Positions 28,424 to 31,800 of a DNA stretch of 43,141 nt are shown in pieces. Each line of letters starts with the position of its first letter. Position 1 is the stretch's first letter. A model generated the notes under the pieces. That model was not told the origin of the DNA. It searched no databases and worked only from the letters and a program-made list of their open reading frames with translations. The DNA comes from a virus, in the IMG/VR virus record IMGVR_UViG_3300040759_000021, positions 1-43,141 of that record, one strand, 5' to 3'. The position numbers and the translations under genes are program-made.

Positions 28424-29374
28424 ATGGAAACCGAAATTCTTACACCGAAAAATGAAACAGAATGGCTCGCCTTACGCGCTGAAAATCTGAACAGCACCGA
28501 GATCCCGGCCTTATTCGACCTCTCCCCCTATATGACGAAATTTGAACTTTGGCATAGGCATAAAGAAAATATCGTTGTCGAATTTGAAGAAAATGCCAGG
28601 ACTCTTTGGGGCAAACGGCTCCAGAATTCCATCGCGCAAGGCATAGCAGATGATCAAGGCTGGGAAGTTTCGGAAATGAAAGAATACATTCGGTGTAGGC
28701 AACTCCGAATCGGTTCCAGCTTTGATTTTTCCATTAATAAATGGGATCGTTCGCCATATTCCGACTGGCCACGACTCACGCAAGAAGGAATTCTCGAGAT
28801 CAAAAACGTAGACTTTCTTCAATTCCGAGACAAGTGGACGAAAAACGATGACGGCACCTTCGAAGCCCCCGCTCATATCGAGCTGCAAGTCCAGCATCAG
28901 CTCATGTTATCCGGGAGATCTTACGCGTATATCGGTGCGCTCATTGCGGGGAATGACATCAAGCTTATTCGCCGCGAAGCCGATCCGGAAATTCATGCCG
29001 CGATTCAAGACCGTGCGGCTTCATTTTGGCATTCGATCGATACAAATAAACCACCAGAGCCGGATTTCTCGAAAGACGCAGACATCATTTCCAAGTTATA
29101 TGGCTACGCGGAACCAGGCAAAACGCTTACGACCGATTCTGATGATTTACTCAGTCTTGTGAGTCAATACCGCGAGGCCGGAAGACAGGCGACGGAATAT
29201 GAGAACCACAAGAAAGCGATCAAAGCCCAAATCCTCAGCATCATCGGTGATGTTGAGCGAGTTGAGCACCCACTTTTTACTATATCAGCAAAGACAAGCC
29301 CTCCGACTTTTGTTAATGCATTTGAGCGGGCAGCGTTTCGTAATTTCAGGGTCACAGAAAGGAAAACCAAATGA
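28424..29374 (+). CDS. YqaJ-type viral recombinase exonuclease
   Basis: A 316-residue protein. The family pattern is complete: LRAENLNSTEIPALFDLSPYMT at the start, SSFDF (Asp101), EIK (125-127) and HIELQVQHQL. It belongs to the PD-(D/E)XK fold and resects double-strand ends 5' to 3'. The RecT-type annealing protein three genes on is its usual partner. ATG 28424 lacks a ribosome site, so the mRNA may be nearly leaderless. Confidence 0.9.
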   Translation: METEILTPKNETEWLALRAENLNSTEIPALFDLSPYMTKFELWHRHKENIVVEFEENARTLWGKRLQNSIAQGIADDQGWEVSEMKEYIRCRQLRIGSSFDFSINKWDRSPYSDWPRLTQEGILEIKNVDFLQFRDKWTKNDDGTFEAPAHIELQVQHQLMLSGRSYAYIGALIAGNDIKLIRREADPEIHAAIQDRAASFWHSIDTNKPPEPDFSKDADIISKLYGYAEPGKTLTTDSDDLLSLVSQYREAGRQATEYENHKKAIKAQILSIIGDVERVEHPLFTISAKTSPPTFVNAFERAAFRNFRVTERKTK

Positions 29375-29697
29375 GGGGCGATCCAGTAAAACCAAAATCA
29401 ATCGAAGAACGGCAAGCGGACAGTCTGATTCAGACGCTCGAGAATACAAAAATCATGATGGAAGCCGTCGCAAAAAAAATGCAGCGGTCAATCAGCAAGT
29501 CAAACGAACTCGAAAATGACATTGTCGTTTTGATGGATCGGCAGAATTTAGTCGAATCGCGGATTTCAAAAATCGAAACGGCATTCAACAAGGCCGGTGT
29601 TCCAGGCTTCAGGACGCCATTTTGGAAACGCATTTTTCGAGTAAAAGACCATCTGTCTCACCTGGAGGGTCCACGTGCAGACTCAAGCAATCTCTAA
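29371..29697 (+). CDS. Coiled-coil protein in recombination block, 108 residues
   Basis: ATGA overlap with the exonuclease stop. Residues 10-72 are one long coiled coil (LIQTLENTKIMMEAVAKKMQ, then SKSNELENDIVVLMDRQNLV). Its place suggests an accessory to the recombinase pair; the family is not recognised. Its end overlaps the next gene by 23 nt. Confidence 0.75.
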   Translation: MRGDPVKPKSIEERQADSLIQTLENTKIMMEAVAKKMQRSISKSNELENDIVVLMDRQNLVESRISKIETAFNKAGVPGFRTPFWKRIFRVKDHLSHLEGPRADSSNL

Positions 29698-30106
29698 AAG
29701 TGTGCCGCCAAATGGCTCGGCGGCCCTTCCTAAGCCTAGCGGCGCGGCGACCAAGACCGATGCCGCTAGGTCAGTTTTTATTTTCAACACCCCCCCAAGC
29801 GAACAGACCATTGCGAACGGATTGAAATTCAAAAAACAATTCGGAATGCGCAAGTGCCGGTTCAATCTGCCGGAACATCCACAAGCTTTCAGTTTCGTTT
29901 ATCTTTTAACCGAGGCGCAACCTGCGAATTTCCCGCATCCACGCGTCTATAATTTCAGTGAGGTGCCAAATGAGTCAGCCCCAACAACCAAACCAAGCCC
30001 AGCCCGTAAGCCAGCCGCCCCAAGGCGTATCCTCTCCCCAGCCGCGCCAGGTAAGCCCGCAGGAAGCGTTCAACAACTCCCTAAAGGCTCAGGAAAACCA
30101 ACTTAA
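29675..30106 (+). CDS. Recombination-block protein with Pro-rich tail, 143 residues
   Basis: It starts at GTG 29675 with GGAGG 7 nt upstream. Residues 32-93 form a compact domain (SVFIFNTPPSEQTIANGLKFKKQFGMRKC...FSFVYLLTEAQPANFPHPRVYNF). The C-terminal 45 residues are Pro/Ala/Lys-rich and are coded by the same DNA as the first 45 residues of RecT, in another frame (29970-30106). No family recognised. Confidence 0.72.
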   Translation: MQTQAISKSVPPNGSAALPKPSGAATKTDAARSVFIFNTPPSEQTIANGLKFKKQFGMRKCRFNLPEHPQAFSFVYLLTEAQPANFPHPRVYNFSEVPNESAPTTKPSPARKPAAPRRILSPAAPGKPAGSVQQLPKGSGKPT

Positions 30107-30893
30107 ACAAATCCTTCCGCCACATGTCCCGATTGAAAAATTCATTCGGATCGTGATGACAGCAGTGATTAAATCGCCAAAACTTCTCGAAGCGAATCGC
30201 ACGAGTCTTTTTTCAGCGTGCCATGATGCCGCGAAAGACGGCCTTCTGCCGGACGGCAAGGAATCCGCGCTCGTTCCGTTCTTCGATAAGAACAGCGGCC
30301 AAGCGATCGTAACTTACATTCCGATGATCGGCGGTATTCTTAAAAAAATCCGCAATAGCGGCGAACTTGGAGCGATCAACTCCCACGAAATCCATGCAAA
30401 CGATCAATTCAAGTATTTCATCGACGAAAAAGGTCCGCACCTCATGCATGAACCGAACTTCATGGGAGGGCGCGGCGACTTCATTGGTGCTTACGCCCTT
30501 GCGATCATGAAGGATGGCGGCATCTATCTCGAGGTCATGACCAAAGAGCAAATTGAGTCCATCCGCAAGCGTTCGCGCGGCGGTGAATCGGGACCATGGA
30601 AAACCGATTACGTGGAGATGGCCAAGAAAACGGTAACGCGCAGACTCGCGAAACGCCTTCCAAGTTCGACCGATATCGAGTCATATTTCCATGACGAAAA
30701 CGAATTTGAATCGATCACTGAAAAAACTCCGGCAGTCGCGCTTGCGGCACCCGTTCAAGAATTGCCAGCGCCAATTCCGGCTGCTGAAGTTGGACCGACA
30801 AAACTTAAGGCTGCAATCAAGGCAAAATCAACGCCAGTAATTGCGCCTAAAGATGAGCCGCCGCCAATAAATTTTGATGACGTTCCGATTTGA
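29970..30893 (+). CDS. recT: RecT-family single-strand annealing protein
   Basis: A 307-residue protein. ATG 29970 is chosen for the GAGGT site; ATG 29958 is also in frame. Residues 1-35 are a Pro/Gln-rich tail, then the RecT core: LSACHDAAKDGLLPDGKESALVPF-type text (here FSACHDAAKDGLLPDG), YIPMIGGILKKIRNSGEL, GGRGDFIGAYALA and KKTVTRRLAKRLP. The C-terminus is Ala/Pro-rich. It anneals the single strands made by the exonuclease. Confidence 0.92.
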   Translation: MSQPQQPNQAQPVSQPPQGVSSPQPRQVSPQEAFNNSLKAQENQLKQILPPHVPIEKFIRIVMTAVIKSPKLLEANRTSLFSACHDAAKDGLLPDGKESALVPFFDKNSGQAIVTYIPMIGGILKKIRNSGELGAINSHEIHANDQFKYFIDEKGPHLMHEPNFMGGRGDFIGAYALAIMKDGGIYLEVMTKEQIESIRKRSRGGESGPWKTDYVEMAKKTVTRRLAKRLPSSTDIESYFHDENEFESITEKTPAVALAAPVQELPAPIPAAEVGPTKLKAAIKAKSTPVIAPKDEPPPINFDDVPI

Positions 30894-30921
30894 TCATTAT
30901 TTAAAACCGAAAGGAAACACC

Positions 30922-31134
30922 ATGTTCACAACACACATGCTAAACACTGAAGGAAAAAAACAGATGGCAGCATTTAAAACAGCCGCGAAAAATTTCGTTG
31001 TCGAGGCGATCCAGTCCATGGAAGACTCCAAAGAGAAGGACATTTTCCTTCAAAAAATTGACGAGGCAGTTTTCTTCGGCGCGAAGGCAATCGCGCAGAT
31101 GGAAGATAACCACGAGTCAAAAACCGACTATTAA
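30922..31134 (+). CDS. Probable Acb2/Tad1-hairpin-type anti-defence protein
   Basis: A 70-residue helical protein from ATG 30922 with an AAAGGA site. The pattern LNTEGKKQMAAFKTAAKNF...KEKDIFLQKIDEAVFFGAKAIAQ matches the outline of small phage proteins classed with the Acb2/Tad1 hairpin domain (LNxxG..., then REKxLxxTKLxEAxFWAxKAIA). Members of that family form hexamers that sequester cyclic nucleotides used by CBASS or Thoeris defence. The match is from pattern memory, so the ligand and even the membership need a profile search. Confidence 0.65.
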   Translation: MFTTHMLNTEGKKQMAAFKTAAKNFVVEAIQSMEDSKEKDIFLQKIDEAVFFGAKAIAQMEDNHESKTDY

Positions 31135-31334
31135 AATTTCGCCCTGAAGCGGAACCTAGAACCAGGATTCAGGCGGAAAAATTCGGCGAGCGCTCGCTGA
31201 ACGAACGTTGCACGGTAGTCGTTAACATGACCGTGTCGGACTGGGGCGGACTTGCCGTAATGTGTGTGCCGCAATTTTTAATACTAGCAATGGAATAATC
31301 CATATCGTAAAATTAAATAAAGAAAGAAGGTACT
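31135..31334 (+). other. Structured 200-bp non-coding stretch
   Basis: No convincing gene lies here; one 23-codon frame (31227-31298) is the longest seen. Three structures follow each other: TTCGCCCTGAA (31138-31148) with TTCAGGCGGAA (31168-31178); the 12-bp palindrome GCGAGCGCTCGC (31186-31197) inside a wider TTC/GAA stem; and CACGGT (31211-31216) with ACCGTG (31230-31235). This density suggests a small structured RNA or a protein-binding region. Confidence 0.45.
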
Positions 31335-31520
31335 ATGACACTATCTCAATTACTCGCATGGCTGGCAGGAAGTGAATTTCAATCGACCGATACCGTTTTC
31401 ATTAAAACATCCGATGGCGTCGCACACGCACTCGTTGGCGTGAGCCGTACAGGAGATACGCAAAACACTCTTCCTCCTGGTCCAGATACGCCTCCATTCA
31501 TCACCCTTCAATTGGGTTAA
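31335..31520 (+). CDS. Small protein, 61 residues, unknown
   Basis: It has an AAGAAGG site before ATG. MTLSQLLAWLAGSEFQSTDTVFIKTSDGVAHALVGVSR reads as helix plus beta hairpin, ending in a Pro-rich loop. No family recognised. Confidence 0.68.
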   Translation: MTLSQLLAWLAGSEFQSTDTVFIKTSDGVAHALVGVSRTGDTQNTLPPGPDTPPFITLQLG

Positions 31521-31599: not shown

Positions 31600-31800
31600 A
31601 TGAGCGTACTCGTTCCAAAAAAAGGCTATACCGAAAATCCAATGCTCGAGTTTCCGCGCAATGACAGATGTCCGTGCGACTCGGGCAAAAAATTCAAGAA
31701 GTGCTGCTATCTTAAACAACAATTATTTATCGATCAAGAAGTCGCAAAAGGCATTTCAGTAGCCGTTAAAACCTACAAGGAAAAACACGGCAAAAAATGA
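31600..31800 (+). CDS. SEC-C motif zinc protein, 66 residues
   Basis: FPRNDRCPCDSGKKFKKCC is a complete SEC-C zinc-binding motif as in the C-terminus of SecA, here as a stand-alone small protein. The C-terminal half is a basic helix. The motif binds zinc and can contact SecB or the ribosome in its best-known host, but the phage role is unknown. Confidence 0.82.
   Translation: MSVLVPKKGYTENPMLEFPRNDRCPCDSGKKFKKCCYLKQQLFIDQEVAKGISVAVKTYKEKHGKK

What the first reader, a model, noticed from the sequence alone, without database searches (positions are those of the whole stretch)
30922..31134. Probable Acb2/Tad1-type cyclic-nucleotide sponge next to recT
The 70-residue helical protein shows the LNxxG...KEKxxxLQKIDEAVFFGAKAIA outline that I associate with the Acb2/Tad1 hairpin family. 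Family members sequester CBASS or Thoeris signals. The helix ending in EAVFFGAKAIA would be the packing helix of the hairpin. If right, this phage carries an anti-signalling protein.
Basis: partly seen in the sequence, partly recalled or inferred. Interest (0 to 1): 0.68.

Follow-up and report, generated by a model that had tools for sequence, protein, structure and literature searches.

The report
Phage sponge for bacterial alarm signals
A phage carries, just after its recT gene, a 70-residue protein of the known Acb2 "sponge" family, which probably soaks up small nucleotide alarm molecules that bacteria make to trigger antiviral defence; it is a new member of a known kind, not a new kind.

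Summary
The ORF at 30922-31134 (+) is a real 70-aa gene with a ribosome-binding site, 28 bases after recT, conserved in position and under purifying selection in a sister phage. It matches Pfam Acb2_Tad1_hairpin over its whole core (E 7.7e-6, 0.5 bit under the curated cut-off). By sequence (E 5.1e-8; 2.4e-32 with a profile of relatives) and by predicted fold (pLDDT 95; TM 0.94, rmsd 0.8 A) its nearest solved structure is PDB 9PTQ, "Acb2 homolog 43 in complex with 3'cADPR". A profile built only from relatives at most 51% identical picks it alone from 836 window frames, at 86 bits; 20,000 shuffles reach at most 17.6. Most likely it forms a hexamer that sequesters a cyclic nucleotide signal. Because 9PTQ holds 3'cADPR, a Thoeris-type signal is as good a guess as CBASS nucleotides. 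Ligand, hexamer state and anti-defence activity were not tested. The window protein departs from near-invariant family residues at two positions (Lys37, Gln44). New member of a known kind. In passing: the 140 bases downstream of the gene include the best-conserved DNA in the compared region, apparently non-coding and unexplained.

The parts
30922..31134 (+). acb2-type sponge gene, 70 aa (predicted: strand 3-7, helix 9-31, helix 37-58, strand 64-69)
30911..30917 (+). Shine-Dalgarno-like AAGGAAA upstream of the ATG at 30922 (approximate position)
   Evidence: read in sequence
29958..30893 (+). recT (RecT-like ssDNA annealing protein), immediately upstream on the same strand
   Evidence: PHROG 148 E 1.7e-61; Pfam RecT E 2.5e-39
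28424..29374 (+). YqaJ/RecE-like recombination exonuclease, head of the same gene run
   Evidence: PHROG 434 E 5.8e-53; Pfam YqaJ E 1e-14
29371..29697 (+). 108-aa conserved ORF between exonuclease and recT, no family
31335..31520 (+). 61-aa ORF downstream, no family; conserved in the sister phage (47% aa)
31600..31800 (+). 66-aa ORF with SEC-C zinc-binding motif, conserved in the sister phage (67% aa)
   Evidence: Pfam SEC-C E 8.4e-9

Best explanation
The gene encodes a phage Acb2-family sponge. After infection the 70-residue hairpin is made along with the RecE/RecT-type recombination genes, assembles (by analogy a hexamer) and binds a cyclic nucleotide signal made by a host defence such as Thoeris or CBASS. 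This keeps the signal from its effector without cutting it. Shown here: the gene is real, belongs to the Acb2/Tad1 hairpin family, and has the predicted fold of Acb2 homolog 43. Inferred from relatives: the hexamer, binding without cleavage, and the anti-defence role. Ligand: unresolved; 3'cADPR is the best single lead because it is bound in the nearest solved structure, with cyclic di- and trinucleotides next.
For: Pfam Acb2_Tad1_hairpin E 7.7e-6, full-length alignment; all 11 members of alignment A3 match the same family, best 7.5e-20. PDB 9PTQ chain, phmmer E 5.1e-8, profile E 2.4e-32; that entry has six chains of this one sequence, which fits a hexamer. AlphaFold2 model pLDDT 95.3; Foldseek hits 9ptq chains A, C and E, TM 0.92-0.94, rmsd 0.8-1.1 A, title 'Acb2 homolog 43 in complex with 3'cADPR'. 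Relatives in Mycobacterium phages carry annotations 'cyclic nucleotide sequestering protein' or 'cyclic nucleotide inhibitor'. Position after recT conserved in the sister phage. T4 Acb2 (Vs.4) matches the same Pfam family and is a proven sponge (PMC12657218, PMC11722364).
Against: The window protein scores 0.5 bit under Pfam's cut-off on its own. It has Lys37 and Gln44 where nearly all relatives, including the 81% identical sister, have Arg and Thr; a changed or weakened site cannot be excluded. T4 Acb2's base-stacking Phe82 (PMC12657218) aligns with Ala58 here, so T4's ligand range should not be carried over. Identity to 9PTQ is only about 30%. The host and its defences are unknown.
Confidence: 0.88

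Rival explanations
1. Same fold and family, but its target is mainly CBASS cyclic di- or trinucleotides and not cADPR isomers (a rival only for the ligand, not for the sponge function).
For: The best-known Acb2 proteins bind cyclic di- and trinucleotides (PMC12043709). The N-terminal aromatic whose loss (Tyr8 in T4) abolishes cyclic dinucleotide binding (PMC12657218) has an aromatic counterpart here, Phe2.
Against: T4's second stacking residue Phe82 is Ala58 here. The much closer relative 9PTQ was solved with 3'cADPR. Window and 9PTQ share the conserved C-terminal N63...Y70 tail, which T4 lacks.
Confidence: 0.4
2. A sponge that has lost or changed its binding site: a decayed family member or one with a new ligand.
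For: Near-invariant Arg37 and Thr44 are Lys and Gln in the window protein only.
Against: Purifying selection (24 synonymous against 13 non-synonymous codon changes). Other conserved positions (F2, T4, H5, L7, N8, G11, K19, K39, F42, K45, E48, F51, F52, G53, K55, A56, I57, A58, N63, Y70) are kept. The gene is better conserved with the sister than recT is (81% against 55% aa).
Confidence: 0.1
3. Not a sponge: a small helical accessory protein of the RecE/RecT recombination module that resembles Acb2 by chance.
For: It sits directly after recT and ahead of other small phage genes in both phages.
Against: The match covers the whole protein and is far beyond chance. The fold match includes both terminal strands. 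Relatives lie in unrelated contexts, e.g. beside terminase genes or a ClpP-like protease, so the gene is not tied to recT.
Confidence: 0.03

Closest known systems
Acb2 homolog 43 (PDB 9PTQ, with 3'cADPR)
   Same: Same length class (70 against 76 residues), full-length alignment including the F-x-T-H start and N...Y tail; TM 0.94, rmsd 0.8 A.
   Different: About 30% identity. The window protein has KEK...LQKIDEA where 9PTQ has REK...KTKLEEA. The paper on 9PTQ was not in the library, so its source phage and affinities were not checked.
T4 Acb2 (Vs.4, PDB 7UQ2)
   Same: Same Pfam family; helix motif AKTKLKEASMWACRAV aligns with FLQKIDEAVFFGAKAI; N-terminal aromatic followed three residues later by His.
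   Different: 88 aa, longer inter-helix region, no conserved N...Y tail; Phe82 replaced by Ala58; no significant pairwise BLAST match; TM only 0.58.
Tad1 (PDB 7UAV, 8KBE)
   Same: Shared hairpin motif RExxxxLTHxEEA in the second helix (weak profile match E about 0.35).
   Different: Tad1 has an N-terminal four-strand beta-sheet (PMC12043709) and chains of 123-138 residues; the window protein is only the hairpin with two short strands.
Mycobacterium phage StellaBean gp101, 'cyclic nucleotide sequestering protein'
   Same: Same REKxxxxTKLEEAMFWANAAIAR helix; same Pfam family.
   Different: About 20% identity; longer N-terminus, no N...Y tail; different neighbourhood (ClpP-like protease).

Membership tests
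Acb2 (Acb2/Tad1 hairpin family) | Profile match to the Acb2/Tad1 hairpin domain (PF24729) | tested here: met
   Full-length match, E 7.7e-6, 26.5 bits against a cut-off of 27; relatives reach E 7.5e-20
Acb2 (Acb2/Tad1 hairpin family) | Two long antiparallel helices without the Tad1 beta-sheet domain | tested here: met
   Model helices 9-31 and 37-58, pLDDT 95; TM 0.94 to an Acb2 homolog
Acb2 (Acb2/Tad1 hairpin family) | Hexameric assembly | not testable with these tools
   No multimer prediction on hand; the nearest entry 9PTQ has six chains of one sequence
Acb2 (Acb2/Tad1 hairpin family) | Ligand pocket residues | tested here: inconclusive
   N-terminal aromatic Phe2 (aligned with T4 Tyr8) kept; T4 Phe82 position is Ala58, as in its own branch; Arg37 and Thr44 replaced
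Acb2 (Acb2/Tad1 hairpin family) | Binds but does not degrade cyclic nucleotides; blocks CBASS or Thoeris | not testable with these tools
   Needs purified protein and phage assays
Tad1 | N-terminal antiparallel beta-sheet domain in front of the hairpin | tested here: not met
   70 aa, hairpin plus two short strands only; Tad1 anatomy from PMC12043709

The most novel reading that the evidence does not exclude
The short MFxTHxLN branch (window protein, 9PTQ and about a dozen viral relatives) is an Acb2 lineage that has turned from cyclic di- and trinucleotides to Thoeris-type cADPR isomers, using its extra N...Y tail strand; the window protein's K37/Q44 changes would tune which signal is bound.
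Probability: 0.25. Interest if true: 0.45.

Novelty: new member of a known kind. Interest (0 to 1): 0.3.

Why it matters
It adds an uncharacterised member to a family of immune-evasion sponges, in a phage known only from a sequence contig, with a solved 3'cADPR complex as a direct template. The branch lacks one of the residues T4 Acb2 uses to stack on cyclic dinucleotides and has an extra conserved tail, so it is a good test set for how sponges change their ligand.

Tried and rejected
A single-sequence scan of bacterial genomes found no relative; with the alignment three MAG contigs were found. tblastn of the protein alone against phages gave only chance-level hits; the PDB 9PTQ sequence had to serve as a bridge. 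No plasmid match. NCBIfam and PADLOC have no model that matches it. The 9PTQ paper and its binding data are not in the library. Structure prediction did not take the alignment with phage-record and PDB rows, so only window and viral-contig rows were used. The weak DUF1189 match (E 0.09) was rejected as chance. The longer 86-aa TTG start was rejected: relatives of the same branch start at the same ATG. A structured-RNA reading of the conserved downstream stretch found no support from folding energy or Rfam.

Full report
What is there. The stretch 30922-31134 on the + strand is an open frame of 70 codons, ATG to TAA, with AAGGAAA a few bases before the start. It begins 28 bases after the stop of recT (29958-30893; PHROG 148, Pfam RecT), which itself follows a YqaJ/RecE-like exonuclease (28424-29374). 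Two small ORFs follow on the same strand, one with a SEC-C zinc motif. The record is a 43,141-base virus contig with no host given; terminase, head-tail connector, protease, major head, tail and endolysin genes occupy its first 16 kb, so it is a tailed phage.

Is the gene real? A sister phage (L003/L004, 81% identical protein) keeps the same order: exonuclease, 108-aa ORF, recT, this gene, 61-aa ORF, SEC-C ORF. The gene differs by 24 synonymous and 13 non-synonymous codons, and 35 of 52 base changes are at third positions. It is better conserved (81% aa) than recT (55%). So it is a coding gene under purifying selection.

What is it? Pfam's only credible match is Acb2_Tad1_hairpin, residues 7-59 against positions 5-58 of 58, E 7.7e-6, half a bit under the curated cut-off. 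In the PDB the only significant sequence is 9PTQ, Acb2 homolog 43 (E 5.1e-8; 2.4e-32 with an 11-member profile). Searches of viral contigs gave, besides the sister phage and an identical contig, relatives at 30-51% identity; all those tested fall in the same Pfam family. The 9PTQ sequence led on to Mycobacterium and Gordonia phages, in some of which the protein is annotated as a cyclic nucleotide sequestering protein or inhibitor. As a control, a profile made only of relatives at most 51% identical picked this frame alone out of 836 in the window (86 bits; next 4.7), and the best of 20,000 shuffles reached 17.6 bits.

Fold. AlphaFold2 with 17 sequences gives pLDDT 95.3: strand 3-7, helix 9-31, helix 37-58, strand 64-69. 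Foldseek against the PDB returns three chains of 9PTQ at TM 0.92-0.94 (query-normalised), rmsd 0.8-1.1 A, and nothing else at E below 1; T4 Acb2 (7UQ2) appears lower down at TM 0.58. The entry title is 'Structure of Acb2 homolog 43 in complex with 3'cADPR', and it holds six chains of the one sequence, as expected for a hexamer.

How it probably works. Acb2 proteins bind cyclic oligonucleotides and hold them without cutting them; Tad1 and Tad2 also take gcADPR (PMC12043709, PMC11722364, PMC12657218). The most likely mechanism is the same here: a hexamer that sequesters the host signal. Which signal is open. In T4 Acb2 Tyr8 is needed for cyclic dinucleotide binding and Phe82 stacks on the bound base (PMC12657218); here an aromatic (Phe2) is kept at the first position but the second is Ala58. 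The branch instead shares a conserved N63...Y70 tail with 9PTQ, which was solved with a Thoeris-type cADPR isomer. I therefore put a cADPR isomer first and cyclic di- or trinucleotides close behind. The window protein itself has Lys37 and Gln44 where relatives have Arg and Thr, a caution.

Context in relatives. In L028 the gene directly upstream is a small terminase and in L043 the gene directly downstream a large terminase; in Arthrobacter phage Jasmine the gene also lies near the large terminase, and in StellaBean next to a ClpP-like protease. The gene thus occurs in several contexts, as anti-defence genes often do, and is not tied to the recombination module.

Verdict. A member of the Acb2 family by sequence and predicted fold: new member of a known kind. 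What remains unshown is the ligand, the assembly and the activity against a defence.

Noticed in passing
window 31135-31275 (+), between acb2 and the 61-aa ORF: Apparently non-coding stretch conserved better than any gene compared: 70 of 73 columns at about 31201-31273 are identical to the sister phage, the best 73-base stretch of the alignable region (next 66), while the recT region is about 67% identical. It is preceded by a 20-base palindrome TTCGGCGAGC/GCTCGCTGAA (31182-31201) that is TTCGATGAGC/GCTCATCGAA in L003, i.e. with paired changes, and by a hairpin at 31137-31179. No Rfam match, no unusual folding energy, no relative outside this phage group. Could be an operator, origin or small RNA; a tiny ORF (MTVSDWGGLAVMCVPQ...) is not excluded.
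   Followed up: partly
L003:3554-3766 (also L004:5001-5213): The sister phage's acb2 has ATT in place of ATG as its first codon, shortly after a perfect AGGAGG, suggesting a rare ATT start; the next in-frame ATG would drop the conserved F-T-T-H strand.
   Followed up: no
window 31600-31800 (+): 66-aa protein that is little more than a SEC-C zinc-binding motif; its best PADLOC match is the C-terminal end of E2-type proteins (E 6.5e-6), probably the SEC-C motif alone.
   Followed up: no
L003:3450-3520: A GGCTACGGCGACGGC-type repeat lies between recT and acb2 in the sister phage and is absent from the window.
   Followed up: no
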